Assembly (NCBI RefSeq): GCF_026410195.1
Contig: NZ_JAPMLM010000074.1
Span: forward strand, 36,001-100,000
Direction: 5' to 3'
DNA: 64,000 bases
From: Xanthomarina sp. F2636L
GTDB lineage: Bacteria; Bacteroidota; Bacteroidia; Flavobacteriales; Flavobacteriaceae
The notes beneath the pieces were generated by a model that searched no databases, was not told the origin of the DNA, and was given only the letters and a program-made list of their open reading frames with translations. The position numbers and the translations under genes are program-made. Below, one piece after another: positions 8,203 through 44,167 of this stretch; the first letter of the stretch is position 1; each line of letters starts with the position of its first letter.

Positions 8203-8913
8203 TTAAGCGTTTTGGTTAACAACCAATCTAAACCCTTCCCCGTGAATATTCAAAATTTCAACATTCTCGTCTAATTTTAAATACTTTCTAAGTTTGGCTA
8301 TATATACATCCATACTTCTAGAAGTAAAATAATTATCGTCTCTCCAAATTTTAGTTAAAGCCAACTCTCTTGGCATTAAATCGTTTTCATGTAAAGCCAA
8401 CAAACGCAATAATTCATTTTCTTTAGGAGATAATTTTACTTGTTCCCCTCCATCATAGACTAAGAAACGTAATTTTGAATTTAAATCGAACTTACCTATT
8501 TTAAATTCAAACTGTTTACTGTCTGAAACGGTTTCAGTTGCTTTACGTTGCATGATAGCTTTAATTTTCATTAATAAAACCTCACTATCAAACGGCTTGT
8601 TTAAATAATCGTCTGCACCAACTTTATAGCCTTTAAGCACGTCTTCTTTCATGGCTTTAGCCGTAAGAAACACAATAGGCACATCGGTGTTTTTCTCTCT
8701 AATTTCTTTAGCTAAAGTAAAGCCGTCTTTATAAGGCATCATCACGTCCAGAATACAAAGATCGAAATCGTCTTTTTTAAATTTCTCAAAGCCTTCCATA
8801 CCATTTTTGGCATGAGTAACCTGATAATTATTCATCATTAAATAATCCTTAAGAATGGTTCCAAAATTTGGATCATCTTCTACTAATAATATTTTTTTCT
8901 GTTGTTCATTCAT
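8203..8913 (-). CDS. OmpR-family response regulator
   Basis: A DNA-binding response regulator of 236 aa. The receiver domain (residues 7-120) has the acidic pair EDD at 12-14, the phospho-acceptor Asp56 in LCILDVMMP, and a conserved Lys in LNKPF near 105. The C-terminal winged helix (about 135-232) contains SRSMDVYIAKLRKYL as the recognition-helix region and GEGFRLV at the end. It follows its histidine kinase by 5 bases on the same strand. The pair resembles the Bacteroidetes RprX/RprY type, an assignment by general similarity only. Confidence 0.93.
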   Translation of the reverse strand: MNEQQKKILLVEDDPNFGTILKDYLMMNNYQVTHAKNGMEGFEKFKKDDFDLCILDVMMPYKDGFTLAKEIREKNTDVPIVFLTAKAMKEDVLKGYKVGADDYLNKPFDSEVLLMKIKAIMQRKATETVSDSKQFEFKIGKFDLNSKLRFLVYDGGEQVKLSPKENELLRLLALHENDLMPRELALTKIWRDDNYFTSRSMDVYIAKLRKYLKLDENVEILNIHGEGFRLVVNQNA

Positions 8914-8918
8914 AGCTT

Positions 8919-10496
8919 TTACGATATTAATGGAAGTTTTATAACAAACGTACTTCCTTTGTCCTTTTCACTTTCAACTGATATATGACCTTGATGGTCT
9001 TCTACTATTCGTTTAACATAAGCTAAACCTAATCCATGACCTTTTACATCATGTCTATCTCCTGTGTGTTCTCTATAAAATTTTTCAAAAACACGTTTTT
9101 GTGCAGCTTTACTCATTCCACTGCCTTGATCTTTAATTTTTAACAAAATATTGGTGCCTACATTTTCTGTAGTAACATCAATTATTGGGGCTTTATTTTC
9201 TGGAGTGTATTTAATAGCATTATCCAGAATATTTACAATAACATTTGTAAAATGTGTTTCATTTGCTAGTATAGATGAATTTTCTTCTGTTAAATTAATA
9301 GAGATGTTTCCGTTTCGGTCTTCCACTAATAACTCAACATGTGTAATAGCATCTTCTATTATGTCGTTTAATGACACAGGTTCCTTACTAATATTTAATT
9401 CATTTCGTTCAAGTTTAGAAATTCTCAATACATTTTCTACTTGAGCATGCATGCGTTTGTTTTCTTCTTTTATCATTCCAAGATAACGCAGGACTTTTTC
9501 TTGATCTCCAATAACACTTGGGTTTCTTATAGCATCTAAAGCTAAGTTTATAGTAGCAATAGGTGTTTTAAACTCGTGTGTCATATTATTAATAAAATCT
9601 GTTTTAATTTCTGAAATCTTGCGTTGTTTTAATAATTGCATTAAAGCACTTGTATAAGCGATTATAATGATAAACGTAAAAATGAATGATAGCAATGTCA
9701 TTTTAATTATAGACGATTGTACAAACACATTTCTTTTTGGAAAATTAACCAAGAGTCTGTAATTGCTAGAATCGATATTATTTTGAAAGATTGGAACACT
9801 AAAAGTTGTTTCTGTAATAAGCTCAAAATCTTCCGATTGAATTTTAGTTGCCAAGTCATTACTATATATGGCAAATTGAAAATCGATATCTATATCATCA
9901 TCGTTTAATTTATTTTTTAGAAGGCTTGCTATTTCTTCTTTAGAAACACGTTTATGGATTGGAACTCGATAAGATAAATCTTCATATGCTGTGTCGTAAA
10001 ATATTTCAGCACCTTTAGATAATTTACCAAATTCGAACATCATGGCATCCAAATTTAAATTAGAATTAGATTCCAAAGCATTACTCTTTAAAACTTTAGT
10101 CTCTCTTTCGCTTAATACTTTCTTAATATTAATACTATCTATACCTATGTCAAAGATCGATGAAGACAATTTATAATTCTCTTCTAAAATACTGTTTCTA
10201 TAAATTAATTTCTCGTTAGAACCTTTACCTTCTTCTTTTAAGTAAAAATCTCTAAATGCTGTTGTATCTGGTGTTACACCTTGGTCTAATAAATCTTGAA
10301 TTTTTAAAGCATACTCTTTAAACTCTCTGTCTTCAATGTTTTTTGAAGTATAACTTAAAGCCTTTTTTACATTAAATGTAAATTGCTCTTCCTCATTTTT
10401 TAAAGAATTATTAATATAATAGGCTTGAACGAAAATGATACCAACCAACGACAAACTCATTAATAATATCAGTATGACGAATAACTTTTTGCTCAT
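8919..10496 (-). CDS. Membrane sensor histidine kinase
   Basis: A 525-aa sensor kinase partnered with the downstream regulator. It has an N-terminal membrane segment (about 5-27), a large periplasmic sensor region (about 30-262) with no recognisable domain, and a second membrane segment (about 263-286). HisKA follows with the phospho-accepting His307 in NNMTHEFKTP. The ATPase domain has an N-box (422-426, NILDN), G1 (DQGSGM, 456-461) and G2 (GHGLGL, 486-491). All catalytic boxes are intact. The signal is unknown. The kinase is the first gene of the pair and is followed closely by the regulator, so one transcript is likely. Confidence 0.94.
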   Translation of the reverse strand: MSKKLFVILILLMSLSLVGIIFVQAYYINNSLKNEEEQFTFNVKKALSYTSKNIEDREFKEYALKIQDLLDQGVTPDTTAFRDFYLKEEGKGSNEKLIYRNSILEENYKLSSSIFDIGIDSINIKKVLSERETKVLKSNALESNSNLNLDAMMFEFGKLSKGAEIFYDTAYEDLSYRVPIHKRVSKEEIASLLKNKLNDDDIDIDFQFAIYSNDLATKIQSEDFELITETTFSVPIFQNNIDSSNYRLLVNFPKRNVFVQSSIIKMTLLSFIFTFIIIIAYTSALMQLLKQRKISEIKTDFINNMTHEFKTPIATINLALDAIRNPSVIGDQEKVLRYLGMIKEENKRMHAQVENVLRISKLERNELNISKEPVSLNDIIEDAITHVELLVEDRNGNISINLTEENSSILANETHFTNVIVNILDNAIKYTPENKAPIIDVTTENVGTNILLKIKDQGSGMSKAAQKRVFEKFYREHTGDRHDVKGHGLGLAYVKRIVEDHQGHISVESEKDKGSTFVIKLPLIS

Positions 10497-11161: not shown

Positions 11162-12126
11162 TCTATAATAATAAACTCTATATGTTCTTGAGACAGCTTT
11201 ACATGTTTCACCATGTTTGGTTCTTTTACAATTTTCGGAATTAAATACTCAGTCCCAACTTCAATTTTATTGTAATCGCAAATAATTTCAAAATCGGTTG
11301 CCTTAATTTTATTATAATTCGATAAACTTGTGTAATAAGTTACATAAACTTTTTTAGGAAAGTACTTAATTGTAAGATTTTCTGGAATATTTATTACTGA
11401 AACCGGAATTTTTAAATGACCTTCAGTAAACTTATTAACCTCTCCATAAACTGTAACTTTAGAATCTGAAAACTTGAGGTTTCCATCAATATTCTCAGGT
11501 AATTTTAAAGGAATAGGCATATTAATATTGGCTTTAATGTCTTTTAATTTTATAGAATCTGTTTCTACATAAGAGATTTTAGAAACCAAAACTTCTGGAC
11601 CTATAATTTTAATAGAGTCAGGAACCACCCGAAGAGAATCAAGCAAGTCGAAACCCTGTGTATATTCTATTTTCGAAAGCAACTTAATAGGCACCTGTTT
11701 TACAGCGTTTATATCGTATCGAAATTTTAATGTATCTGGAGTTATACTAACAATTTCTTCGTTTTTAGGAAACTGTAAATTTATACCAGAATAACCTTGA
11801 TGTTTATTCCATACATAGTAATCTTCTGTTTTGGAAATATTTTCACTAAAGTCGATGTTTATTTCTGGGTTATTAAAATAGTATTTTAATAAGTTAAAAC
11901 CATGGCTTCGTAAGGTAATATGTAATTTATCAGACTTATCGTTTAACACTAAATGACTTTCTGGGATGTGTATTTTGTTAATTTTAAAAGCTATTGTGTT
12001 TGTATAGGTGTTTGATAATTTTATAAATAAAAGCACTATAAAAGAAAGTAAAACAAACAAAAAAAACACATTTATTTTTTTGTTTTTAAAAGAGGCTAGT
12101 AATTTGGATTTTAGATATTTTATCAT
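11158..12126 (-). CDS. YbbR-like domain protein
   Basis: A 322-aa single-pass membrane protein with an N-terminal membrane helix (about 18-36) after a basic cytoplasmic tail, followed by repeated YbbR-type beta domains outside the cytoplasmic membrane. In Firmicutes, YbbR/CdaR regulates the diadenylate cyclase CdaA. No cyclase gene is adjacent here, so that link cannot be assumed. It overlaps coaE and the upstream glycosyltransferase by 4 bases on each side. The family call rests on topology, beta-rich composition and the conserved coaE neighbourhood. Confidence 0.78.
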   Translation of the reverse strand: MIKYLKSKLLASFKNKKINVFFLFVLLSFIVLLFIKLSNTYTNTIAFKINKIHIPESHLVLNDKSDKLHITLRSHGFNLLKYYFNNPEINIDFSENISKTEDYYVWNKHQGYSGINLQFPKNEEIVSITPDTLKFRYDINAVKQVPIKLLSKIEYTQGFDLLDSLRVVPDSIKIIGPEVLVSKISYVETDSIKLKDIKANINMPIPLKLPENIDGNLKFSDSKVTVYGEVNKFTEGHLKIPVSVINIPENLTIKYFPKKVYVTYYTSLSNYNKIKATDFEIICDYNKIEVGTEYLIPKIVKEPNMVKHVKLSQEHIEFIIIE

Positions 12127-13133
12127 GTCTTTTTAAAGAATAAATCTGGAAACTCTTTTTCAGGATCTCTTTTAAAGATATTAATTGCAATAGTCGCTTT
12201 TAAAAAACCTATGCCATATCCCATAAACTGAATACAGATAGCTAGAATAGCTAAGCTGGCAATAGTTAAGCTTTTGGTTTTAAATAGAGCCCACGTAAAA
12301 GCAGTTAAAAAGTAAACAAGATATAATACTAAAAATAATTTAAAGTTAAAAATTCCCCATAGTATAATACTAAAAAAAAAGCCTGTTACAAAAAGTGAAG
12401 GAAACCAATAAGTCACCTTTTTGGTTTCCGGATGCCAGCTATTTAAAATAGGACGCACCATACCAAATTTGTTTACTTGTTTATAAAATTTTTTCCATGA
12501 GATTCTACGTTTATGAAACACATAGGCCTCTGGTATTAATTTTGTTTTAAAACCTAAATTCCAAAGCCTTATGGACAAGTCTGGATCTTCACCAGGATGT
12601 ATTTCTCCAAAACCTCCAGATTTATCAAAGGCCTCTTTAGAAAGTCCCATATTAAAACTTCTCGGTTGGAATTTGTTGACACTCTTTTTATTCCCTCTGA
12701 TTCCTCCAGTCGTCAAGAACGAAGTCATAGAAAAGTTTATCGCTTTTTGAATATTTGAAAAAGAATCATGAGATGCATCTGGTCCACCAAAACAATCAAC
12801 ATAATCTTTGGTTAGACTTTTTATTACTTCATTTAAGTACTTAGGTGGCAGAATACAATCGCTATCTAAAATAATAAAATAATTACCTTTAGCTTGTTTC
12901 ATCCCAAAATTTCTAGAATCTCCAGGCCCCGTATTGTTTTTTTTAAAATAGGCAATATCCAACTGCTGATTATAGGTATTGATTATATTTTCTGAAGTTA
13001 CAGTAGAACCATCTTCCACAATAACAATTTCAAAATTTAAACTTGTTTTAAGTCTTGTAAAACTCTGTAACAACTCTTCTATTTCGTCAGGACGATTATA
13101 AACAGGGATTATAAATGAAAACTCTAGTTGCAT
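12123..13133 (-). CDS. Family 2 glycosyltransferase
   Basis: A GT-A fold glycosyltransferase of 336 aa. It begins with SFIIPVYNRPDEIEELL, has VEDGS at about 39-43 and the metal-binding DSD at residues 90-92. GEDPDLSIRLW follows, and then a C-terminal pair or triplet of membrane helices. It probably adds a sugar to a surface glycan at the inner membrane; donor and acceptor are unknown. I place the start at the ATG at 13133. An in-frame extension to 13169 would read through the hairpin terminator of the neighbouring gene and add 12 unsupported residues. Confidence 0.9.
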   Translation of the reverse strand: MQLEFSFIIPVYNRPDEIEELLQSFTRLKTSLNFEIVIVEDGSTVTSENIINTYNQQLDIAYFKKNNTGPGDSRNFGMKQAKGNYFIILDSDCILPPKYLNEVIKSLTKDYVDCFGGPDASHDSFSNIQKAINFSMTSFLTTGGIRGNKKSVNKFQPRSFNMGLSKEAFDKSGGFGEIHPGEDPDLSIRLWNLGFKTKLIPEAYVFHKRRISWKKFYKQVNKFGMVRPILNSWHPETKKVTYWFPSLFVTGFFFSIILWGIFNFKLFLVLYLVYFLTAFTWALFKTKSLTIASLAILAICIQFMGYGIGFLKATIAINIFKRDPEKEFPDLFFKKT

Positions 13134-13160
13134 ACAGCAAATGTAGCTAAACAAAAAAAT

Positions 13161-13186
13161 AAAAGCCACTCGTTTGAGTGGCTTTT
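13161..13186 (-). terminator. Terminator of the first T9SS surface-protein gene
   Basis: AAAAGCCACTC and GAGTGGCTTTT pair perfectly around GTTT. On the minus strand the hairpin is followed by a T-run (the A-run at 13153-13160). The same GCCACTC stem ends the next T9SS gene, and a shorter version ends the third. Confidence 0.8.
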
Positions 13187-13213: not shown

Positions 13214-16200
13214 TTATTTTTTAACAACTTTAATTGTTTTAGTTGCATTGTCTACAGTTACTTTTACAAAGTAAGTACCTGCTTGTAGACTTGACATATC
13301 TACTTCACTAATAGCAGTATTAGGAGCAGTTCTAATTACTTCTTGTCCTAATAAGTTAAAAACGGCTACATTTTGAATGTTCTTAACACTTCTTAAATTT
13401 AAAGTATTACTTACCGGATTAGGATAATATTTAAAGCTTAAAAATTCTGACTCCTCAACACTTAAAGATTCATCAATTGAGATGTTATCTAAATGCAAGT
13501 AAAATTCATTAGCATTAGAATAGGCTTGAAAACCTATATAATACACCCCAGTTGTTGCAGGAGTAAAATCTTGTGAATCATTAATCGGAGTTCCATTTAC
13601 AACATTTGGATAATCTGCAATTTCGTTTATCATTGATGCAGCATTATTACTTGTTCCATAAGCTACTCTTAATGCTTCTGGAAAAGATGTACCAGTTCCG
13701 CCATAATCATAAGAAATTGTATAAGTCTGTCCTGCAGTCAAATTAATACCTTGGGTATAAAACCATGTATTAGCTGGATTACTTGTATCCCAACTATATC
13801 TTAAATGGTTTGGGGTAAACCCATAACCTGTTGCATCAACAACTTGCCACATATTACCAGTTCCATCATTCGTAATAGACGTACAATTTGGAGTTGATGT
13901 AGAAGCTTGAAAATCTATTAGATAAGGTACGTTGGTTGCAGTACATTGCGTTGCAAAACTAAAAGGTCCTGCCCAAGTAGAATAATCTCCACCACAATTT
14001 GCTCTAACATAAAACTCATAATTATTAGAATCTGTTAAACCACTTAAAGCATAAGGATTTCCTACATCAGTTGCTGTTGGAGTCCCTGATACTGTTCCTC
14101 CAGCCGTAATATCCACTAATTCAATATCCCATAAAGTTTCTGAATCACCCGCTGTCCAACCTAAGTCGGCAGAAGTTGTTGTAATGTTTGAAACATTTAA
14201 ATTTGTAGGCATTAAACAAGATGGTATCATCTCCCATGTTACATCATCAATTAAAAGACTATTTGCTGGCGAACCAGTATGTCTGATTGCTGGGAAATTT
14301 GAATATGTTCCTGCTGCAGGCATAACAATGTATTCCTCATAAGTTGTAGAAGCTGCTGTAACGGACTCAATAGATACAAAAGAAGTAGCTTCCATTGGAT
14401 TCGTTAAATATCCAAATTCTATAACACCTCCAGTTGTAAAATTGGCTCTCATATTAAATCTAAGTCTGTGAGTTCCATCTCCTAAGTTAGATACTGGTTG
14501 CATAGTAACAAGTGCTATATTTGTAGTCGAACTGCTATACATATAAAGCGTATTAGGTGCTGAATTTGGAGATCCTGTTTGCGTATTTAAACTACCTGTG
14601 GCTCCTACTTTAAACCAACAGTTTGGTAATTCAGGAGTTGTAAGGCTGTCAAAGTTTTCAGAAAATTCAGTTACAAGATCACAAGATGTTGTAAAGCTAT
14701 ATGGTCCAGTCCAAGGGCTTAGGTCTCCACCACCACAATTTGCTCTCACATAAAACTGATAATCGTTAGATGCTACTAAACCACTTTGAGTATATGGATT
14801 TGCCACATCTGTTGCTGTTGGATTTCCTGTTGCTGTACCTCCTGCAGTAACATCTACTAATTCAACATCCCATAATGTTTCTGAGCCTCCAGCTGTCCAT
14901 CCTAAGTCTGCCGAAGTGGTAGCAACATTAGAAACTGTTAAGTCTGTTGGCTCCACACAAGAAGGAACTTCTCTAAGCATGACTTCGTCTAAATGAATAT
15001 AAGCGAGTGAAGGTCCATAATTACTGGTTCCCATAAACTTAACCACCACATCACTTGAAATATACGATGAAATATCATAAGTTAATGGAGCCCAATCTGC
15101 TTGACCCGTTAAACCATTTGCAATAGAGGTATAAGTCGCACCACCATCAGAAGATACTAAAATTTCAAAATTACCTCCAGTCGGGTTTTTATAATAAAGC
15201 TTTAATTGTAAAGAAGGTAATGCAGATGCATCAAAGATAGGTGAAATTAACTCTGATGTCAATCCACTACTGTTAACATAAGAATTAAACCTCATTCCTC
15301 TTCCTGAAAATCCATCTTCATGACTAGTAAAATGGTAGTTTGGATTTGTTGTTGTACCTTCAACAGACCAACATGCTGGCTGCCCTGATGTAATGCCTTC
15401 AAAAGACTCTAAATAAGGATAAGCAGTTATGTTTTCACATAAGGTTGCAAAAGCAAAAGGACCAGTCCAGCTGCTTAAGTCACCACCACAGTCTGCTTGT
15501 ACATAATATTCAAAATCGGTACTACTAGCAAGTCCTGTTTTTATATATGGATTACCTACTCCAACATCTGTTGCTGAACCAGACGGCTCATTACCAGCAA
15601 CAACCACCTCTACATTATATAACGTGGCGCTTCCATTCTCTGTCCAAGATAATTCAGCTTGAGTTGTTGTAATTGCTGTTGCTGCTAAATCTGTTGGAAA
15701 AGGACAAGCTTGCACGATTCCTCCAAAAATAATATTTGAGCGATAGGCTGCAAGAGTACCTGTTGGTGGTGCAGCAGGATCTGGATTTGTACTATCGCTA
15801 CGATAAAAGATTGAACTGTTAGTTGCAGTCATAGTACTTTGCCAAGCCATGGAGCAATTATAACCTGTAGTATTCTCATCTACACCAACCACTAAATTAT
15901 CTGTCCCATTATATGTAAACGGTGTATCTAAAGTTATGGTAAACCAATTGCCTTCAGCTGGAAATGTTACTGTTCCAGAATAAGATTGTGTTAAATTTGA
16001 CACATCTTCCCAATCTGTGGTAGAAGCAAATTCCGTTTTAGATGTATGTCCTATATATACGTCCCAACCAACACTAGAATCAAAAGATGTTGCACTAGTT
16101 GCTTCATCTAAATAAAAAGATAGAGATGTAATGTCTCCTGAAGTGTTAATTTCTGATGCTAGAAATAATTGCTGCGAATAGGTGTATCCCCAGCAACTTG

Positions 16201-16309
16201 TAATTGGCAAGTTTGTAGTTGTTCCAGTTTCTGAACCAATCTGTACTTGCGAAAAAGTCGAAAAGGTTATTGCAAAGAAAAATGCAAAAACAAATGTAAT
16301 TTTTTTCAT
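13214..16309 (-). CDS. T9SS-sorted surface protein with three FN3-like repeats
   Basis: A 1031-aa exported protein. The signal peptide is residues 1-20 (ends FSTFSQ). Three related fibronectin-III-like repeats lie at about 202-290, 452-542 and 697-788, each with an LxW(T) core and a DCGG/NCGG motif before SxWTGP or SxWAGP. Between and after them are beta-sandwich regions of the 'choice-of-anchor J'/MAM-like type, for example about 291-450. The C-terminal 75 residues form a type A T9SS sorting domain (YPNPVSNTLNL, LLGQEV, GTYFVKV, KTIKVVKK). No protease or glycosidase site is visible, so an adhesive or binding role is inferred. It shares its promoter layout with the next two genes. Confidence 0.9.
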   Translation of the reverse strand: MKKITFVFAFFFAITFSTFSQVQIGSETGTTTNLPITSCWGYTYSQQLFLASEINTSGDITSLSFYLDEATSATSFDSSVGWDVYIGHTSKTEFASTTDWEDVSNLTQSYSGTVTFPAEGNWFTITLDTPFTYNGTDNLVVGVDENTTGYNCSMAWQSTMTATNSSIFYRSDSTNPDPAAPPTGTLAAYRSNIIFGGIVQACPFPTDLAATAITTTQAELSWTENGSATLYNVEVVVAGNEPSGSATDVGVGNPYIKTGLASSTDFEYYVQADCGGDLSSWTGPFAFATLCENITAYPYLESFEGITSGQPACWSVEGTTTNPNYHFTSHEDGFSGRGMRFNSYVNSSGLTSELISPIFDASALPSLQLKLYYKNPTGGNFEILVSSDGGATYTSIANGLTGQADWAPLTYDISSYISSDVVVKFMGTSNYGPSLAYIHLDEVMLREVPSCVEPTDLTVSNVATTSADLGWTAGGSETLWDVELVDVTAGGTATGNPTATDVANPYTQSGLVASNDYQFYVRANCGGGDLSPWTGPYSFTTSCDLVTEFSENFDSLTTPELPNCWFKVGATGSLNTQTGSPNSAPNTLYMYSSSTTNIALVTMQPVSNLGDGTHRLRFNMRANFTTGGVIEFGYLTNPMEATSFVSIESVTAASTTYEEYIVMPAAGTYSNFPAIRHTGSPANSLLIDDVTWEMIPSCLMPTNLNVSNITTTSADLGWTAGDSETLWDIELVDITAGGTVSGTPTATDVGNPYALSGLTDSNNYEFYVRANCGGDYSTWAGPFSFATQCTATNVPYLIDFQASTSTPNCTSITNDGTGNMWQVVDATGYGFTPNHLRYSWDTSNPANTWFYTQGINLTAGQTYTISYDYGGTGTSFPEALRVAYGTSNNAASMINEIADYPNVVNGTPINDSQDFTPATTGVYYIGFQAYSNANEFYLHLDNISIDESLSVEESEFLSFKYYPNPVSNTLNLRSVKNIQNVAVFNLLGQEVIRTAPNTAISEVDMSSLQAGTYFVKVTVDNATKTIKVVKK

Positions 16310-16339
16310 AAGATTTTAGTTAATTATTAATAGTTATCT

Positions 16340-16416
16340 TAAAAATATTAATTTATAATAGATTAATATGACTTCATAAAGACTAATCGATGAAAGCCAT
16401 ATTTCTACGATGAACT
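16340..16416 (-). promoter_or_regulatory. Upstream element and -7 box of T9SS gene 13214-16309
   Basis: On the minus strand, TATTTTTA (16340-16347) lies 31 bases before the ATG. An upstream element at 16384-16416 contains two copies of TTCATCG with their CG dinucleotides 20 bp apart (16408-16409 and 16388-16389). The gene-proximal CG is 41 bp from the box. No TTG is seen at the -33 position. Confidence 0.55.
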
Positions 16417-16431
16417 TAAGCATAAAAAAAA

Positions 16432-16451
16432 AGCCACTCTTTCGAGTGGCT
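16432..16451 (-). terminator. Terminator of T9SS gene 16480-19932
   Basis: AGCCACTC and GAGTGGCT pair around TTTC. On the minus strand a T-run follows (A-run at 16423-16432). Confidence 0.78.
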
Positions 16452-16479
16452 CTTAAATTTATATAAAAAATTAAGTAAC

Positions 16480-19400
16480 TTATTTCTTAATCACCTTAAT
16501 GGTTTTGGTGGTGTTCTCAATCATCACTTTTACAAAGTAAGTACCTGTTTGAAGTTCTGACATATCCACATCGCTATTAACACTGTTAGGAGCCGTACGT
16601 AGTACCTCTTGACCTAGCATGTTATAAATAGTTACATTCTGGATGTCTTTAACACCTCTTAAAGACAAAGTATTGTTCACTGGATTTGGGAAATAAGTAA
16701 ATCCTGTTAACCCATAATCTTCAAGACCTAATGGAGAACAACCTACTGTTGCTTCCCAACCTTCTCTTGTTACACCACTATCTGAAGTAAACACAAAGGT
16801 TAAACAACCAGATCCGTCTGTAGACGTAATAGTCATCCCTTGTAAGTCTCCTGTTCCTCCTGGTGTAGCATCATCTCTATCCCAACACCAAATAGTTCCA
16901 GTTGTTGGATTAATAGTTGGCGCAGAAGCATCAGGACCATCATGGATAGTTAAGCCATCATAACATCCAGTACTTCCACTATTCTCTGTACTAAAGAATG
17001 TAAACGTTACATTTACCGCATCTCCTGGTACATCTGGACAAATAGTTGTAGTTATATTAGCACTATTAGAATAGTCTGAAGCAATACCTCCATCATCATA
17101 GAAATTTCCTCCACAGGCTGGTGGTGGATCTGCAGTTACAAAAGTATAAGGCCCAGTCCAATCACTAGTGTCTCCTCCTCCACAATCTGCACGTACGTAG
17201 AAATCGTACGATGTAGAAGCTGTTAAACCTCCTAAAGTATGTGGATTTGTTGCTGTATCTTCAATATTTGGTACACCTGTAGGAGTAAAACCAACGGTTC
17301 CCCATTCTATATCCCATGCCGTTGCAGTACCATTCTCTGTCCAACCTAAATCTGCAGAAGTTTCTGTTAGATTTGAAGCTGTTAAACTTGTTGTAGCTGG
17401 ACACGTTGGAGGTGTTCCAACACACACATCAAAGGTAGATGTTTGACCTGGAGTATTTGTCCAAGTATATACTTGTACAAAATACGTATTTCCTATAGTT
17501 AAGCCAGTTAAATTACTTGTGTTTCCATCATTACAAATTACAGATGTTGTTAACGCTCCACAACCAGGAGTTGCATCATAAACTGCATGATACATATCTG
17601 TAGTACTTCCAGCTATGTTTATTAAAGAAACTCTATGTTCTGTTGCAGTTGCAATAAAGCTATACCATACATCATCATCTTCAAATCCTCCACATACATC
17701 AACACCAGAGTTTGTTGCTCCTAAAACGGTTCCAGAAGTTACTGTACCACATGCATAATCGGCATTCACCGTTAAAGCTATGGCAGCTCCACATTCGTCG
17801 TTTGCAGGTGCAGGTGCATTTGTTGTAAACGTATAAGGTCCAGCCCATGCGCTAGTATCTCCACCACCACAATCTGCACGTACATAGAAATCGTACGATG
17901 TAGTAGCTGTTAAACCTCCTAAAGTATGTGGGTTTGTTGCTGTATCTTCAATACTAGGTGTTCCAGTTGGTGTAAAACCATTAGTTCCCCATTCTATATC
18001 CCAAGCTGCTGCAGTACCATTTTCAGTCCAACCTAAATCTGCAGAAGTCTCTGTTAGATTTGAAGCTGTTAAACTTGTTGGGGCTGGACACGTTGGTGGT
18101 GTTCCAACACATACATCGAAACTTGTTGTAGTAGATGTTAAAGAACTCCACGTATAAATTCTAAAGAAATACGTATTTCCAGATGTTAATCCTGTTAAAT
18201 CTATCGGTGAATTAGGTGTATCTTGACATACAAGACTTGTTCCTCCACATGCATCGAAAACTTCTGTAACAATATCAGAACTTCCACCAGTATTGGTTAT
18301 CATTATTCTATGACTATCTCCTGTGGCAACAAATGAATACCATACATCATCATTTGCAGTTCCTAAACATCCTGGAAGACTTTGAGTTGCAGCTATGGTA
18401 GTTCCTGAAACGGCACTAGCACAAGAGTAATCTGGATCTACTGTTAAAGCAGTGGCAGCGCCACATTCGTCGTTTACAGGAGGCGCAGTAGAAGTGAAAT
18501 TAACTGGCCCAGCCCAAGTACTCAATCCATTGGTATCACAATTAGATTGTACATAAAAATCATAGTCGTTTCCAGCAGTTAAACCTGTAGCTGTATCAGA
18601 AGTAACACCAACTGCAGTAGAACCTAAAGCAACAGGTGCATCTACATCTGGATCTTGACCAGAAGTCATGACTGCCCAGTTATAACCGGAAGTTGCACTA
18701 CCTTCCACATCCCAAGATAGGGTTGCAGATGTATCACCTGGAAGTACTGTAACATCAAGATTAGTTGCTTCAAAACACGTTGGGATTGCAGCACATGTTA
18801 ATGTAATATCTATTGTTCCAGTAGTTGTATTACCAGAAGCATAATGAGCAATATAAACATAATATGTTTCACCTGGTGAAGATGTAAAAGTGTAAGATTC
18901 TGTACCTCCACTTCCAGTTCCATCATCACAAATAATATTAACCAAACTACCACAAGTACCACTAGTAATTGCCATTTCATGATCGAAACTAGCAGTCGAT
19001 TCAACAGTCATGTCTCCTCCAGTACCTGTAAAAGTAAACCAAATACCGTTATCTCCAATAGAGCAGCCACTTCCTTCTTGGTTTCCTGTAGAACCTACAG
19101 AACTACCATTTATAGTATCACCACATACCATTGGTGTAGCATTTGCACAATCTATATTACTAGGAGGACAAAAATATTGAAAATTTCCTAGAGAGAAATT
19201 ACATGCAGGATCAGAATGTTCAACTGTAAGAGTCACGTTTGTTCCAGTTGCATAAGGACCAGCTGTTACCAATCCAGAAGCTACAGTAAACATTCCACCT
19301 AAACCATCTGTAATAACCGTTCCATCTCCAACTGAAGATACAACTACATCTACAGAAAATTGGCTACTTCCACAATCATCAACTACAGTTGAGCTATCTA

Positions 19401-19932
19401 CAACAGCTGGAGTACATGTAGGAGCTGCATCATTCACAAACTCGTCTACATATAAATAGAACTGATTTGCTCCTGTAGCTTTTATAGCTATATAAATTGG
19501 AGTTCCATCATAAGCAGATAAGTCATAAGAAAATTGCTCAAAAACTGGCGCATCCGTACTAGCTAATTCATCTCCTAATGAAACTGAAAAATCTCCAGGT
19601 GCCACACCAGTTGTTGAAAGTAATACTTCAAAAGATTCAATATACCCCAAATAACTAGCAGCCCAGAAAGATATTCTATCTGAAACACCTGCTGTAACAG
19701 TAAATTGTGGGGAAATTAAGTAGTCATCATGAGCACCTGAATTATATGTAATTCTAGCACTACCACCTCCAGCATAACTTTGAGCTGTACTGTGAACCCA
19801 AGTATTTCCTCCATCTACATCAACAACTGTCCATGTAGCTGGAATCTCAGCATCAAAACTTTCCGTAAACTGCGCATGGCCTTGCCAACAAAAGGCAAGC
19901 ATGGCAACTAATAAAATTGTAATTTTTTTCAT
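16480..19932 (-). CDS. T9SS-sorted surface protein with FN3-like repeats and a CUB-like domain
   Basis: An 1150-aa exported mosaic. It has a signal peptide (1-20, ends WQGHAQ) and an N-terminal choice-of-anchor-J-like region (about 21-170). A pre-peptidase-like beta module lies at about 258-380, followed by an FN3-like domain at 382-480. A module of about 229 residues (FN3-like plus an NDECGAA pre-peptidase-like domain) is repeated: FN3 copies begin near residues 616 and 844. A region beginning CGGNFYDDGG (about 939-1070) resembles a CUB domain, with paired cysteines and a TIHDGPD-type core. The T9SS type A sorting domain occupies about 1075-1150. It is rich in Cys, Thr and Gly with no catalytic motif visible; an adhesin or glycan-binding role is inferred. 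Confidence 0.9.
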   Translation of the reverse strand: MKKITILLVAMLAFCWQGHAQFTESFDAEIPATWTVVDVDGGNTWVHSTAQSYAGGGSARITYNSGAHDDYLISPQFTVTAGVSDRISFWAASYLGYIESFEVLLSTTGVAPGDFSVSLGDELASTDAPVFEQFSYDLSAYDGTPIYIAIKATGANQFYLYVDEFVNDAAPTCTPAVVDSSTVVDDCGSSQFSVDVVVSSVGDGTVITDGLGGMFTVASGLVTAGPYATGTNVTLTVEHSDPACNFSLGNFQYFCPPSNIDCANATPMVCGDTINGSSVGSTGNQEGSGCSIGDNGIWFTFTGTGGDMTVESTASFDHEMAITSGTCGSLVNIICDDGTGSGGTESYTFTSSPGETYYVYIAHYASGNTTTGTIDITLTCAAIPTCFEATNLDVTVLPGDTSATLSWDVEGSATSGYNWAVMTSGQDPDVDAPVALGSTAVGVTSDTATGLTAGNDYDFYVQSNCDTNGLSTWAGPVNFTSTAPPVNDECGAATALTVDPDYSCASAVSGTTIAATQSLPGCLGTANDDVWYSFVATGDSHRIMITNTGGSSDIVTEVFDACGGTSLVCQDTPNSPIDLTGLTSGNTYFFRIYTWSSLTSTTTSFDVCVGTPPTCPAPTSLTASNLTETSADLGWTENGTAAAWDIEWGTNGFTPTGTPSIEDTATNPHTLGGLTATTSYDFYVRADCGGGDTSAWAGPYTFTTNAPAPANDECGAAIALTVNADYACGTVTSGTVLGATNSGVDVCGGFEDDDVWYSFIATATEHRVSLINIAGSTTDMYHAVYDATPGCGALTTSVICNDGNTSNLTGLTIGNTYFVQVYTWTNTPGQTSTFDVCVGTPPTCPATTSLTASNLTETSADLGWTENGTATAWDIEWGTVGFTPTGVPNIEDTATNPHTLGGLTASTSYDFYVRADCGGGDTSDWTGPYTFVTADPPPACGGNFYDDGGIASDYSNSANITTTICPDVPGDAVNVTFTFFSTENSGSTGCYDGLTIHDGPDASAPTINPTTGTIWCWDRDDATPGGTGDLQGMTITSTDGSGCLTFVFTSDSGVTREGWEATVGCSPLGLEDYGLTGFTYFPNPVNNTLSLRGVKDIQNVTIYNMLGQEVLRTAPNSVNSDVDMSELQTGTYFVKVMIENTTKTIKVIKK
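17121..18102. repeat. Tandem internal duplication, period about 687 bp
   Basis: Two FN3-like coding blocks, about 17121-17415 and 17808-18102, are nearly identical over most of their length. For example, cacaatctgcacgtac (with one difference after it) occurs at 17181 and again at 17868. The offset of 687 bp is 229 codons, so the frame is kept. The adjoining NDECGAA modules are also related but more diverged. Confidence 0.75.
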
Positions 19933-19961
19933 GTTAAATAATTAATTTATTGATTAGAATC

Positions 19962-20037
19962 TAAAAATATTGATAATAATTAGTTAATAAAGTGTTAATT
20001 CAAATAAATCGACAAAAGACAACATTTTAACGATGAA
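19962..20037 (-). promoter_or_regulatory. Upstream element and -7 box of T9SS gene 16480-19932
   Basis: On the minus strand, TATTTTTA (19962-19969) lies 30 bases before the ATG. The upstream element has TTTCATCGT and TTTTGTCGATTT half-sites with CG pairs at 20031-20032 and 20010-20011, 21 bp apart. The gene-proximal CG is again 41 bp from the box. Confidence 0.55.
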
Positions 20038-20055
20038 ATTAAAAATATAAAAAAA

Positions 20056-20071
20056 CCACTCTAATGAGTGG
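20056..20071 (-). terminator. Terminator of T9SS gene 20104-21600
   Basis: CCACTC and GAGTGG pair around TAAT, flanked by A- and T-runs that extend the stem with one bulged base. It is the same core stem as the terminators of the two neighbouring T9SS genes. Confidence 0.65.
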
Positions 20072-20103
20072 CTTTTAAATATTATTATAAAAAAACAATC
20101 AGA

Positions 20104-21600
20104 TTACTTCTTAATTATCTTTATGGTTTTAGTCGTATTATCAACAGTTACTTTTACAAAATAAGCACCTGGCTGAAGGTTTGACATATCCACATCACTT
20201 TTAACAGCGTTAGGAGCTGTACGAAGTACTTCTTGTCCTAACATGTTGTAAATAGCAACATTTTGAATAGCTTTCTGTCCTTTTAATGTTAATGTATTAT
20301 TAACTGGGTTAGGATAGTATGTAAACGTATCTGATTCAGCAAACTCTCCTACCGAAATAGTAGGACAGGTTATACTAATAGTATGTGTTCCTGTAACTGT
20401 ACTCGATCCACTCCAATGAGCGATATAAACATAATATGTTTCACCATCAACTGAGTTAGTGATAGTATATGATTCAGCGCCAGTAGAACTATCTATACAA
20501 TCTACATTTACTAAAGCGCCACAAGTACCACTTGTTATAGCTAACGCATGATCAAAAGAAGCAGTAACATCTATATTAATATCACCTCCATAACCTGCAA
20601 AAGTATACCATACACCATTAACTCCTAGAGTACAACCACTACCTTCCTGGGTTCCAGTTGAACTTACACTAGTTCCAGATATACTGTCACCACATGCAAT
20701 AGGAGTAGCTGTTGCACAGGTTTCATTTGCTGGTGGTGCAGGTGCAGACTCTGTTGTTAGTGACCAAGTTGCGCAACCAGTAGCAGCACCAAAACAATTA
20801 ATTGGAATAACAGACCAAGTATAGGCTGTACCATAATCTAGACCAGTGATACTTATAGATGTTCCTGGTATATTGGCTAAGGTATTTCCTTCAAATACAA
20901 AATCGTAAGAAATAGCGCCAGGAACTGCATTCCATGAAAAGGCTACTACACGAGATAAGCCATCATTTGAATCAGTTGTAACTACATCTGTAGCTGTATC
21001 TAGAGGAGAAACAGGTGTTGTACAAGCAGGAGCTGCTGTTTCAGTACAACTATATACCTCTACATTATCGAAAGCCCATCCCCATGAATAATTTCCTATC
21101 CATTTAAACCTAACCTGTGCATTTGTTACACCTGCTAAATGTGCAGTTACATCAATGTTTTCTAGTCCATAAGCAGTCGTAGCATCATAAGAAGCAACAG
21201 CAACCCATGCAGAACCATTATATACTTCAACAGATGCACTACCTCCATAACCACTTGTAAAAAAATGATTATATTTTAAGGTCACAGATGTTAGCGCTGA
21301 ACAATCAAAAACTGGGCTTTCTAGAGCGGCTTCTTCTGCTGGACCTCCATATCCATCACTATCGAAAATAGCGTAATTACCATCCATTCCACCATTAACA
21401 TAATAAATAGTGTTTGGGGAAGCATAACCAATAGCTTCACCTCCTGTGGCAAAGGTCCATACATTCCCTCCTCCATCGATATCGTTATTAGTCCACCCTG
21501 CTGGAATTGTTAATCCTGCTTCAAAGTCTTCAGTTAAAACTGTTTGAGCACTCAAGTTAATCATGGCAAACATTGCCAATAATAAAGTAATTTTTTTCAT
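20104..21600 (-). CDS. T9SS-sorted surface protein, short member of the trio
   Basis: A 498-aa exported protein. It has a signal peptide (1-19, ends NLSAQ), a choice-of-anchor-J/MAM-like region (about 20-190), and an FN3-like segment (about 195-285). A pre-peptidase-like module at about 291-410 starts NETCATATPIACG and is clearly related to the module at 258-380 of the neighbouring 1150-aa protein. A T9SS type A sorting domain (about 425-498, YPNPVNNTLTL, GAYFVKV, KTIKIIKK) ends the protein. No enzyme motif is visible. The sorting domain differs at only a few positions from those of its two neighbours, consistent with duplication. Confidence 0.9.
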   Translation of the reverse strand: MKKITLLLAMFAMINLSAQTVLTEDFEAGLTIPAGWTNNDIDGGGNVWTFATGGEAIGYASPNTIYYVNGGMDGNYAIFDSDGYGGPAEEAALESPVFDCSALTSVTLKYNHFFTSGYGGSASVEVYNGSAWVAVASYDATTAYGLENIDVTAHLAGVTNAQVRFKWIGNYSWGWAFDNVEVYSCTETAAPACTTPVSPLDTATDVVTTDSNDGLSRVVAFSWNAVPGAISYDFVFEGNTLANIPGTSISITGLDYGTAYTWSVIPINCFGAATGCATWSLTTESAPAPPANETCATATPIACGDSISGTSVSSTGTQEGSGCTLGVNGVWYTFAGYGGDINIDVTASFDHALAITSGTCGALVNVDCIDSSTGAESYTITNSVDGETYYVYIAHWSGSSTVTGTHTISITCPTISVGEFAESDTFTYYPNPVNNTLTLKGQKAIQNVAIYNMLGQEVLRTAPNAVKSDVDMSNLQPGAYFVKVTVDNTTKTIKIIKK

Positions 21601-21629
21601 AAATAATTATTTAAATTGTTGTTAACGCA

Positions 21630-21706
21630 TAAAAATATCAATAATAAATAGTTAAGGAAGCTTCTATTTTGAGTAATCGATAAAAGGCCATATTCTTACG
21701 TTACAA
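21630..21706 (-). promoter_or_regulatory. Upstream element and -7 box of T9SS gene 20104-21600
   Basis: On the minus strand, TATTTTTA (21630-21637) lies 30 bases before the ATG. The upstream element has TAACGTAAG and TTTTATCGATTA half-sites with CG pairs at 21699-21700 and 21678-21679, 21 bp apart. The gene-proximal CG is 41 bp from the box, as in the other two genes. A 13-A run (21716-21728) lies just upstream. Confidence 0.55.
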
Positions 21707-21819
21707 TACAGAAATAAAAAAAAAAAAACGTCTCGATAATAAAATTTCGATTAGTCAATAGAAATTCTAATAAACACCAAGTTAGAGTTTCTTACTACAT
21801 TTCATGTTTATGTATAAAA

Positions 21820-21878: not shown

Positions 21879-22700
21879 TTATTCTTCTCCTTTAATAAAG
21901 GCTTCCATAACTTCGTTACTTACTCCCATATTACTAAATCCTCCATCGTGGAAGAGGTTTTGTAAAGTAACCTTTTTTGTTAAGTCACTAAACATAGCCA
22001 CCGTATAATTGGCGCAATCTAAGGCTGTCGCGTTTCCTAAAGGCGACATTTTATCGGCATATGCAATAAACCCGTCAAATCCTTTAACTCCTGATCCTGC
22101 CGTTGTAGGTGTTGGCGATTGTGAAATGGTATTTACACGAACCGTTTTATCTTTACCCATAAAATAACCAAAACTTCTAGCAATACTTTCTAAGTAAGCT
22201 TTATTGTCTGCCATATCATTATAATCAGGAAATACACGTTGAGCAGCCATATAAGTTAAAGCTACAATACTTCCCCATTTATTCATGGCGTCTTTTTTAT
22301 GCAAGGTTTGCATGACTTTATGGAAAGATATGGCTGAGATATCTGTACCTTTTTGCGTCCAATCGTAATTTTGGTTTGTATAGGCATTTCCTTTTCTTAC
22401 ATTTATAGACATACCTATTGAATGCAAAACAAAATCTAGTTTTCCACCTAAAATTTCAACAGACTTTTCAATTAGATTTTCTAAATCTTCAATTGATGTT
22501 GCATCTGCTGGAATAATTTGCGACCCTGTTTTTTCTGCCAGAGCATTTATTTCTCCCATACGTAAAGCTACCGGTGCATTGGTTAAAACAAAAGTCCCTC
22601 CTTCTTCATGAACACGTTCGGCCGTTTTCCATGCAATAGAATTTTCGTCAAGAGCTCCAAATATAATTCCTCTTTTTCCTTTTAATAAGTTGTATGACAT
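21879..22700 (-). CDS. fabI: Enoyl-ACP reductase (NADH)
   Basis: Reduces trans-2-enoyl-ACP in the final step of each cycle of type II fatty-acid synthesis. It is a 273-aa short-chain dehydrogenase of the FabI type. The cofactor region near residues 9-20 reads KRGIIFGALDENSIAW, and the catalytic pair Tyr160 and Lys167 has the FabI YxxxxxxK spacing. SQSPTPTTAGSG near 194-206 is the substrate-binding loop. Soluble. It is followed by its own terminator and preceded by recN in the same direction with an 85-base gap. Confidence 0.95.
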   Translation of the reverse strand: MSYNLLKGKRGIIFGALDENSIAWKTAERVHEEGGTFVLTNAPVALRMGEINALAEKTGSQIIPADATSIEDLENLIEKSVEILGGKLDFVLHSIGMSINVRKGNAYTNQNYDWTQKGTDISAISFHKVMQTLHKKDAMNKWGSIVALTYMAAQRVFPDYNDMADNKAYLESIARSFGYFMGKDKTVRVNTISQSPTPTTAGSGVKGFDGFIAYADKMSPLGNATALDCANYTVAMFSDLTKKVTLQNLFHDGGFSNMGVSNEVMEAFIKGEE

Positions 22701-42751: not shown

Positions 42752-44167
42752 ATGAAAATAGACGCTAAATTTTTAATTTTTCTATTATTTCCACACTTTC
42801 TATTTTCGCAAGAAATTGAATTAGGTATATATGCTTCTGGCTTTACAAATCCCTTAAGCATTAAAAACGCTGGAGATAACAGGCTTTTTGTGGTAGAGCG
42901 TGGAGGACTTATAAAAATTGTAAATACAGATGGTTCTGTAAACAACACACCTTTTCTAGATATAGATTCTAGAGTTTTAAGTGGAGGAGAAAGAGGGTTA
43001 CTTGGCTTGGCGTTTCATCCTCAATATGCTTCCAATGGTTTTTTCTTTGTAAACTATACAGATAATAATGGAGACACGGTGGTATCTAGATTTATAACAA
43101 ATCCACCAAACTCAAATACTGTAGACCCCTCAACCGAAACTGTTTTAATAAACGTGGAGCAACCAAGTAGTAATCATAATGGAGGTGATTTAGCTTTTGG
43201 AAACGATGGCTACCTGTACATAGGTCTTGGTGATGGTGGTTCTAGCGGAGATCCAGGAGATAGAGCTCAAAATTTAACAACCATGTTAGGCAAAATGCTT
43301 CGTATAAATGTTGATAATTCAGATCCAGGATTAAATTATGCTATTCCTTCAGACAACCCTTTTCCAAATACAGAAGAACCTAACGCATTACCAGAAATTT
43401 GGGCTTATGGCTTAAGAAATCCCTGGAGGTTTTCTTTTGATAGAGAAACACATGATCTTTGGATAGGCGATGTTGGCCAAGGTCAAATAGAAGAAATCGA
43501 TATGGTTCCTCTGGACCAAGCAGCTGTAAATTACGGTTGGCGTTGTTATGAAGGAGATCAAGTTTATGACACTTCAGGAAATTGTCCTAGTGATATAAAC
43601 GAATTGACATTTCCTATATCGCAATACACACATTCGTCTAGTGGTAATTTTAAATGTTCTATCACTGGAGGTTATAGATACAGAGGAACTGCCCAACCAA
43701 ACTTAAATGGTTTGTACTTTTTTGCAGATTACTGTAGTAACGAAATTGGTATTCTTGAAAATAATGGTGGTTCATGGAACATGACTTTTACAACTCCATA
43801 TTCCGGAAACGGCTGGACTGCATTTGGAGAAGATGTAAATGGAGAAATTTATATTGTAGGTATTGATTCTGGAAACGTTTACAGACTATTAGATCCAAGT
43901 TTGAACATACATGAAAATAAATTGTTAGATATAAACATATTTCCAAACCCTGCAACCCATGTATTTACAGTTAAAAGCACTAACCCTCAAATTGTTATTG
44001 CAACTGTAAATATTTATAATTTACAGGGAAAACTTGTTAAGTCTGTTTCTGAAAATATAGCTTCTGAAATTAATATTGACACAAAAACTTTATCAAAAGG
44101 GTTTTATTTAACTGAAATAATCTCTCAAACCGGCGCTAAAACAACACAAAAGCTAATTATTAAATAA
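42752..44167 (+). CDS. PQQ-dependent sugar-dehydrogenase-like protein with T9SS sorting domain
   Basis: A 471-aa exported protein. It has a signal peptide (1-19, ends FLFSQ) and a six-bladed propeller of the soluble glucose/sorbosone dehydrogenase family (about 25-375). Landmarks are RGLLGLAFHPQ, NHNGGDLAFGNDGYLYIGLGDGG (spanning about 131-153) and EIWAYGLRNPWRFSFD. A T9SS type A sorting domain (about 395-471, IFPNPATHVFTV, LSKGFYLTEI) follows. It probably oxidises sugars at the cell surface. Unlike the trio at 13-21 kb, its upstream region lacks the CG-pair element. Confidence 0.93.
   Translation: MKIDAKFLIFLLFPHFLFSQEIELGIYASGFTNPLSIKNAGDNRLFVVERGGLIKIVNTDGSVNNTPFLDIDSRVLSGGERGLLGLAFHPQYASNGFFFVNYTDNNGDTVVSRFITNPPNSNTVDPSTETVLINVEQPSSNHNGGDLAFGNDGYLYIGLGDGGSSGDPGDRAQNLTTMLGKMLRINVDNSDPGLNYAIPSDNPFPNTEEPNALPEIWAYGLRNPWRFSFDRETHDLWIGDVGQGQIEEIDMVPLDQAAVNYGWRCYEGDQVYDTSGNCPSDINELTFPISQYTHSSSGNFKCSITGGYRYRGTAQPNLNGLYFFADYCSNEIGILENNGGSWNMTFTTPYSGNGWTAFGEDVNGEIYIVGIDSGNVYRLLDPSLNIHENKLLDINIFPNPATHVFTVKSTNPQIVIATVNIYNLQGKLVKSVSENIASEINIDTKTLSKGFYLTEIISQTGAKTTQKLIIK

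What the first reader, a model, noticed from the sequence alone, without database searches (positions are those of the whole stretch)
16340..21706. Three consecutive T9SS cargo genes share a fixed-geometry upstream element
Seen directly: upstream of 13214-16309, 16480-19932 and 20104-21600 there is a TATTTTTA box 31, 30 and 30 bases before the ATG. A two-part element has CG dinucleotides 20, 21 and 21 bp apart, embedded in TTCATCG- or TTTATCGATTA-like half-sites. The gene-proximal CG is exactly 41 bp from the box in all three, although the surrounding intergenic sequence has diverged. The -7 box differs from the usual TAnnTTTG by its last base, and no TTG is present at -33. Inference: an activator-dependent promoter. 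Direct repeats about two helical turns apart are the geometry of LytTR-type and some response-regulator sites. The T9SS-exported sugar dehydrogenase at 42752 lacks the element, so it marks a subset of cargo.
Basis: partly seen in the sequence, partly recalled or inferred. Interest (0 to 1): 0.72.

Follow-up and report, generated by a model that had tools for sequence, protein, structure and literature searches.

The report
Family-wide LytTR switch on surface-protein genes
Three neighbouring genes for predicted exported surface proteins share a two-part upstream DNA element that recurs at fixed spacing in related bacteria and is likely the docking site of one highly conserved regulator, which would make control of this export system directly testable.

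Summary
All three genes are T9SS cargo; each has two CG-containing half-sites 20, 21 and 21 bp apart and a TATTTTTA box 41 bp beyond the proximal G. It is not just a duplication relic. At the same [cargo array]-glycosyltransferase locus in 12 genomes of six genera, 24 of 25 M[KR]KIT cargo genes could be anchored; TAnnTTT[AG] sits at offset 42 in 20 of 24 and at none of 41 other offsets (0.18 expected each). Family-wide matches resolve the half-site as a direct repeat, TGCATTTYATCGA, period 20-21, like the GGCATTTCAT repeat of the E. coli LytTR regulator YpdB. The operator is found in 6 of 9 family genomes and 2 of 286 others of the class, near T9SS cargo, gldK (four genomes) and other genes. 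An orphan LytTR response regulator between priA and rpsF tracks it: 100 of 101 family genomes with the element encode it; 1 of 75 without it has the element. Binding, activation and the regulator's identity are inferred; 12 other LytTR proteins were not tested for co-occurrence.

The parts
13214..16309 (-). T9SS cargo gene A (1031 aa; fn3 repeats, Por_Secre_tail)
16340..16347 (-). -7-like box TATTTTTA of gene A
16384..16419 (-). two half-sites of gene A (proximal CG C at 16389, distal at 16409; period 20)
16429..16454 (-). terminator-like hairpin between gene B and the gene A promoter region
16480..19932 (-). T9SS cargo gene B (1150 aa; choice-of-anchor J, fn3, Por_Secre_tail)
19962..19969 (-). 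-7-like box TATTTTTA of gene B
20006..20042 (-). two half-sites of gene B (proximal CG C at 20011, distal at 20032; period 21)
20051..20076 (-). terminator-like hairpin between gene C and the gene B promoter region
20104..21600 (-). T9SS cargo gene C (498 aa; Por_Secre_tail)
21630..21637 (-). -7-like box TATTTTTA of gene C
21674..21710 (-). two half-sites of gene C (proximal CG C at 21679, distal at 21700; period 21; distal weak)
21879..22700 (-). fabI-like gene on one side of the array; also beside the array in five of the six other same-genus stretches read (not in G003)
12123..13169 (-). family 2 glycosyltransferase gene on the other side of the array; the same neighbour by sequence likeness in the other arrays read

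Best explanation
The shared element is likely the tandem binding site of a LytTR-type response regulator that would activate a -7 promoter from about three helical turns farther upstream than at other sites of the same operator. Shown: a direct repeat of TGCATTTYATCGA-like half-sites, period 20-21 bp; a TAnnTTTA box at a fixed 42 bp in cargo arrays of several genera; the same operator at other genes of the family, where TAnnTTTG peaks 11-13 bp after the proximal CG (7 of 78 sites). Inferred: two regulator monomers sit side by side on one face of the helix and recruit RNA polymerase (42 minus 11 is 31 bp, three turns). The most likely regulator is the orphan REC-LytTR protein encoded between priA and rpsF (own genome C54:308971-309663, minus; outside the window). 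It would couple cargo arrays to T9SS machinery (gldK, seen in relatives) and other surface genes. Its input signal is unknown; two TPR histidine kinase genes next to operator sites (L197, L224) are possible sensors.
For: Fixed spacing: of 25 M[KR]KIT array genes in 12 genomes 24 could be anchored; TAnnTTT[AG] at offset 42 in 20 of 24 and at none of 41 other offsets, 0.18 expected each; alignment A4. Direct-repeat half-site from family-wide matches. Half-site core and period like YpdB's. Operator model R2: 101 of 299 family genomes at E<=1e-3, about 0.3 expected; three of the 299 (G000, G002, G003) held training sites. R3: 6 of 9 family versus 2 of 286 other genomes of the class at E<=1e-4; only G000 of the six held training sites. 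An exact gapped pattern in about 85,000 species genomes: 10 stretches, all in Bacteroidota records. Box peak: TAnnTTTG at 11-13 bp in 7 of 78 sites, 0.9 expected in the whole range 6-20. Regulator: orthologues (E<=1e-60) in 224 of 299 family genomes, often 94-100% identical; 100 of 101 genomes with operator have it, 1 of 75 genomes without it has the operator, Fisher P 8e-15; in the class sample clear orthologues (59% identity or more) are in exactly the 6 family genomes with operator. Targets: half-sites before gldK in four genomes, T9SS type A and type B cargo.
Against: No binding, expression or TSS data. The own genome has 13 LytTR proteins; the other 12 could not be tested for co-occurrence, and shared ancestry inflates the Fisher value. 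124 of 224 genomes with the regulator show no R2 match at E<=1e-3. G291 has the operator without a detected orthologue; G431 and G619, outside the family, have operator matches but no or only a 39% hit. The regulator's own locus has no R3 site. Over the whole protein, L213, L215 and L219 score better against YpdB than L216 does. Array half-sites are degenerate at TGC, and a distal CG is missing in 6 of 25 array genes; five of 25 lack a full TAnnTTT[AG] at 42, all five outside the genus. Most of the 78 operator sites have no TAnnTTTG nearby, and 9 more lie at 21-86 against 4 expected. Three of the ten named sites (L229, L230, L233) have no surface-protein gene downstream. The own gldK was not located. 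At the SixA-like gene the operator abuts the start codon, which suits repression better.
Confidence: 0.66

Rival explanations
1. The element is a LytTR-type site, but it is read by a different one (or several) of the 13 LytTR proteins, not by the priA-rpsF one.
For: 13 LytTR proteins in the own genome, three of them next to T9SS cargo genes (L218, L220, L222). L213, L215 and L219 score better than L216 against YpdB.
Against: Only L216 was tested for co-occurrence, and the match is near perfect; its very high conservation fits a global regulator with many targets.
Confidence: 0.2
2. A regulator of another class binds (AraC-type output of a hybrid sensor, LacI-type on the CG-centred near-palindromes, or a LuxR-type dimer).
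For: Each half-site is nearly palindromic around CG (TTTTATCGATAAAA); AraC-type proteins also use 21-bp repeats (recalled). In the own-genus sites alone, direct and inverted readings could not be separated.
Against: Family-wide sites mostly show TGC or TGT on the 5' side of both halves, so the repeat is direct, and the core GCATTTCAT equals the YpdB box.
Confidence: 0.1
3. The similarity of the three promoters is a by-product of tandem duplication or gene conversion in the cargo array, with no regulatory role.
For: A 414-bp block spanning C-terminal domain, terminator and promoter is 74% identical between the two gene junctions; most family-wide matches are not at arrays.
Against: The same geometry is kept in other genera with different passenger genes and different box letters, and the operator occurs at unrelated genes.
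Confidence: 0.03

Closest known systems
YpdA/YpdB (PyrS/PyrR) system of E. coli and its yhjX promoter
   Same: Direct repeat of GGCATTTCAT, period 21, bound by a REC-LytTR response regulator (PMC4847170 passages; yhjX promoter read).
   Different: YpdB has a partner kinase next to it and, per that paper's abstract passage, only one target gene; here the candidate is an orphan with many candidate targets, half-sites carry an added CGA, and many of the genes are T9SS related.
Bacteroidota sigma-A promoters (-7 TAnnTTTG), F. psychrophilum transcription-start map
   Same: TAnnTTT box; if transcription starts 12 nt after the box start, the leader is 25-26 nt, near the reported median of 24 (PMC9723704 section 15, read).
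   Different: Array boxes end in A (20 of 20 full matches), and no -33 TTG is present in the window's three. The main text of that paper does not contain 'LytTR'.
PorX/PorY-SigP control of T9SS in Porphyromonas gingivalis; ECF-type SM6 promoters in F. psychrophilum
   Same: Transcriptional control of T9SS genes.
   Different: Those act through an ECF sigma factor (PMC4800418, abstract start in the search listing; PMC9723704 section 15). The element here is a LytTR-type repeat in front of a sigma-A-like box.

Membership tests
LytTR-type tandem binding site | two repeats of 9-11 nt separated by 11-13 nt (definition in PMC4847170) | tested here: met
   9-nt core GCATTTYAT at period 20-21, i.e. 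11-12 nt apart; array sites are degenerate forms
LytTR-type tandem binding site | the two halves are true repeats (direct) | tested here: met
   TGC/TGT lies 5' of both halves in most family-wide sites; the own three alone were ambiguous
LytTR-type tandem binding site | bound by a LytTR-domain protein | not testable with these tools
   only co-occurrence with the L216 orthologue
REC-LytTR response regulator (YpdB-like) | Response_reg and LytTR domains in the candidate | tested here: met
   PF00072 E 4e-19 and PF04397 E 4e-19
REC-LytTR response regulator (YpdB-like) | partner kinase encoded next to it | tested here: not met
   neighbours are priA and an rpsF-like gene; an orphan
Bacteroidota sigma-A promoter | TAnnTTTG at -7 | tested here: inconclusive
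   TAnnTTTA at fixed spacing in arrays; transcription starts unknown
T9SS type A cargo | Por_Secre_tail C-terminal domain above cut-off | tested here: met
   all three, 54-59 bits against a cut-off of 23

The most novel reading that the evidence does not exclude
One orphan LytTR regulator, 94-100% identical across many genera, is the master switch of type IX secretion in Flavobacteriaceae: it drives the machinery (gldK) and its adhesins, and it lets a fast-changing array of secreted proteins swap passenger genes while each keeps the same docking site at a fixed 42-bp distance.
Probability: 0.38. Interest if true: 0.85.

Novelty: new member of a known kind. Interest (0 to 1): 0.66.

Why it matters
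How flavobacteria decide which surface proteins to send through T9SS is largely open. In the searches made here (open-licence PMC papers, judged by titles and abstract starts) no listed paper announces this motif or a LytTR regulon for T9SS; several listed papers that mention LytTR were not read. The finding gives a defined operator, a promoter geometry, candidate target genes and one named candidate protein, so the question can be answered with one gene deletion and one binding assay in a laboratory strain.

Tried and rejected
A model of only the three window sites (R1) finds nothing else strong in the own genome (next E 0.3). I first took this as a purely local element; that was wrong, because R1 was too tied to the array. 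The inverted-repeat reading (ATCGTTAAAA...TTTTATCGAT) and a LacI-type CG-centred palindrome looked good on own-genus sites and were dropped when family-wide sites showed TGC 5' of both halves. Autoregulation of a LytTR gene: no R3 site above noise in the 13 LytTR loci (two matches, E 0.06 and 0.1). porX as target: at the tsaE/porX locus seen (L166) the site lies downstream of porX, so it is not claimed. Cargo enrichment in the own genome: I miscounted (6 of 32 at E<=0.5); one search corrects it to 5 of 31, expected 0.375, P 4.5e-5; in one of the five (L123) a small gene stands between site and cargo gene. Under the harsher null that all sites lie in promoters (1500 or 2000 units, guessed) one search gives P 0.002-0.02, so enrichment is moderate. 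The anchor was chosen with the box in the score and is biased; one search repeats it with an anchor blind to the box. One search counts only genes that begin M[KR]KIT: some array cargo with other starts (e.g. 572 aa in L254, 576 aa in L255, 573 aa in L256) were left out, and one of 25 had no CGA anchor. The non-genus arrays were found through R2, which includes box columns, so they are not a random sample; two genes with the box at 42 in those loci (438 aa in L253, 463 aa in L254) are not in the printed, capped R2 list. The 78 sites include both strands and overlapping pairs, three array sites of other genera (L154, L160, L165) and sites used to train R3. The E. coli-type promoter scan found fewer sites than shuffles (14 against 22) and was not used. 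No search names the own species; f1 is taken as Flavobacteriaceae from the named hits and 66-69% ArgS identity to two Flavobacterium loci: inference.
Full report
WHAT WAS CHECKED. The three genes at 13214-16309, 16480-19932 and 20104-21600 (minus strand) each end in a T9SS type A sorting domain. Aligned on the box, the upstream regions show two CG-containing half-sites 20, 21 and 21 bp apart, with the proximal CG 42 bp (C to T; G to T 41) before TATTTTTA, which starts 38, 37 and 37 bp before the ATG. A Markov model expects 0.01 such triples per window. A matrix scan of the window finds no fourth site, so the sugar dehydrogenase at 42752 lacks it. Terminator-like hairpins at 16429-16454 and 20051-20076 make separate transcription units likely. 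Part of the likeness inside the window is duplication: a 414-bp block at the two gene junctions (C-terminal domain, terminator, next promoter) is 74% identical.

CONSTRAINT ACROSS GENOMES. A sequence-only model of the three sites (R1) finds nothing else strong in the own genome but matches six of seven other same-genus genomes at E<=0.01, at the syntenic locus recN-fabI-[1 to 3 cargo genes]-glycosyltransferase-YbbR-like-coaE (names by sequence likeness except those; no fabI in the G003 stretch; one extra gene beside fabI in G005). Arrays of the same layout occur in five other genera. In the 12 genomes I counted every gene that begins M[KR]KIT: 25 genes, 24 with a CGA anchor 74-92 bp before the ATG. 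TAnnTTT[AG] lies at offset 42 in 20 of 24 and at none of the other 41 offsets tested, against 0.18 expected per offset. Thirteen of the 25 are same-genus genes and all 13 have the box; of the 12 from other genera 7 do, and the rest have another word at 42 such as TAAATTAG or TAATTTAA. Box letters vary inside TAnnTTTA (14 TATTTTTA, 2 TAGTTTTA, 2 TATATTTA, 1 TAAATTTA, 1 TAATTTTA), as expected of a -7 element; F. psychrophilum uses TAnnTTTG with a median leader of 24 nt (PMC9723704, section 15 read).

WHAT THE ELEMENT IS. A model of 15 sites (R2: 13 array sites and 2 sites before large T9SS-like genes of G002 and G007) matches 101 of 299 genomes of the family at E<=1e-3, about 0.3 expected; three of the 299 held training sites. 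The best of these read like TGCATTTCATCGAnnAAAAATGCATTTTATCGATTT: a direct repeat, period 20 or 21. E. coli YpdB, a LytTR response regulator, binds a direct repeat of GGCATTTCAT, and LytTR sites in general are two 9-11 nt repeats separated by 11-13 nt (PMC4847170, passages); in the yhjX promoter the two copies are 21 bp apart. So the window's element is a degenerate LytTR-type tandem site in sequence and architecture; that a LytTR protein binds it is inferred. An operator-only model (R3, 45 sites) at E<=1e-4 hits 6 of 9 family genomes (five of them not used in training) and 2 of 286 others in a class-wide sample. An exact gapped pattern over about 85,000 species genomes gives 10 stretches, all in Bacteroidota records, eight of them members of Flavobacteriaceae by their titles (family of Allomuricauda and Croceitalea recalled).

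GEOMETRY. In 78 operator sites outside the own-genus arrays TAnnTTTG is found 11-13 bp after the proximal CG in 7, against 0.9 expected for the whole range 6-20; 9 more lie at 21-86 against 4 expected. Two further sites before large genes in G003 and G216 (L265, L268) have TAnnTTT[AG] at 12 and 11; those proteins match T9SS sorting domains only below cut-off. The array distance of 42 is 29-31 bp more, about three helical turns. Inference: the same face of the helix is used, with the proximal half-site overlapping -33 in the common form and lying upstream of it in the arrays.

TARGETS. In the own genome R3 gives 34 matches at E<=0.5, 31 outside the array; 5 of the 31 fall in the 60 fetched start regions of other cargo genes (0.375 expected for a uniform genome, P 4.5e-5; with a promoter-only null P 0.002-0.02, the first of these with the miscount told below). 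The own genome has 73 sorting-domain matches: 3 are the array, 1 the sugar dehydrogenase, 69 were listed; 4 of these lie at contig edges without a start, 5 were not fetched (one of them nearly the same stretch as L081), 60 were, three cut short at contig ends. None of the 60 has the array-type element (best 12.3 against 30-40 for the 14 training sites). Other own sites precede a 1620-aa type B cargo gene (TIGR04131 E 1e-31), a SixA-like/ppk-like pair, a CAP-like protein, a TPR-HisKA kinase gene (L197), a TPR gene (L135, seen with R2 at E 0.0035, with R3 only at 1.6) and an LRR protein; others precede genes of no known link to T9SS (e.g. DUF1456, L190). Of the ten named sites, three precede large T9SS-like genes (Flavobacterium orientale, F. 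silvaticum, a Flavobacterium MAG; by likeness, not scanned), one gldK, two related exported-protein genes, one a TPR kinase, and three have no surface-protein gene downstream. GldK start regions carry half-sites within 200 bp in four genomes (L067 with one strict half-site, L179, L225, L269; orientation differs); GldK was confirmed by TIGR03525 only for L269 (E 1e-178), the others by sequence likeness. The own gldK was not located.

CANDIDATE REGULATOR. The own genome encodes 13 LytTR proteins. One, L216 (C54:308971-309663, minus), is an orphan REC-LytTR protein between priA and an rpsF-like gene; the rpsF-like neighbour is kept in 17 of 17 loci looked at. In the class sample its clear orthologues (59% identity or more) are in exactly the six family genomes with the operator; the three family genomes without operator have only a 36% hit or none. 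In the family sample 224 of 299 genomes have an orthologue at E<=1e-60, often 94-100% identical. Of 101 operator genomes 100 have it; of 75 genomes without it 1 has the operator (Fisher P 8e-15); by class: 62 of 98 genomes with an orthologue of about 85% identity or more (my grouping), 38 of 126 with weaker ones, 1 of 75 with none. Phylogeny is not corrected for, the other 12 LytTR proteins were not tested, and G291, G431 and G619 are exceptions. By overall score L213, L215 and L219 are closer to YpdB than L216.

JUDGEMENT. Shown: the geometry, its conservation, the direct-repeat LytTR-type architecture, the family-wide spread, the co-occurrence with one regulator. Inferred: binding, activation, the -7 role of the box, the helical-face model, the regulator. 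Known in kind (LytTR sites); as a T9SS-linked regulon not announced in any title or abstract start listed. A LytTR mutation in F. johnsoniae is mentioned in PMC10197871 (passages), its contribution there called unknown.

Noticed in passing
window 13214-21600; loci L059-L064, L253-L256, L263: The locus beside the glycosyltransferase gene is a turnover array of one to four or more T9SS cargo genes: passengers differ between species while promoter, signal-peptide start (MKKIT) and C-terminal domain are kept.
   Followed up: partly
own genome C54:308971-309663 (locus L216): An orphan REC-LytTR regulator between priA and rpsF is 94-100% identical in many genera of the family, which seems unusually high for a regulator.
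   Followed up: yes
L188 (own C51:3746), L180, L071: The operator lies directly before the start codon of a SixA-like gene in three genomes of different genera (followed by a ppk-like gene), a position that would suit repression.
   Followed up: no
own genome C58:204332-204431 (L186, L194, L199): A cluster of overlapping operator matches on both strands between a pdxH-like gene and a CAP-like gene.
   Followed up: no
L218, L220, L222 (own genome): Three of 13 LytTR genes sit next to T9SS cargo genes.
   Followed up: no
own genome C65:372861-386132: A second cluster of six T9SS sorting domains, without the array-type promoter element in the start regions read.
   Followed up: no
window 8203-10496: A histidine kinase and OmpR-like response regulator pair near the array (named by likeness), also near it in several relatives; considered as regulator but no site evidence supports it.
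   Followed up: no
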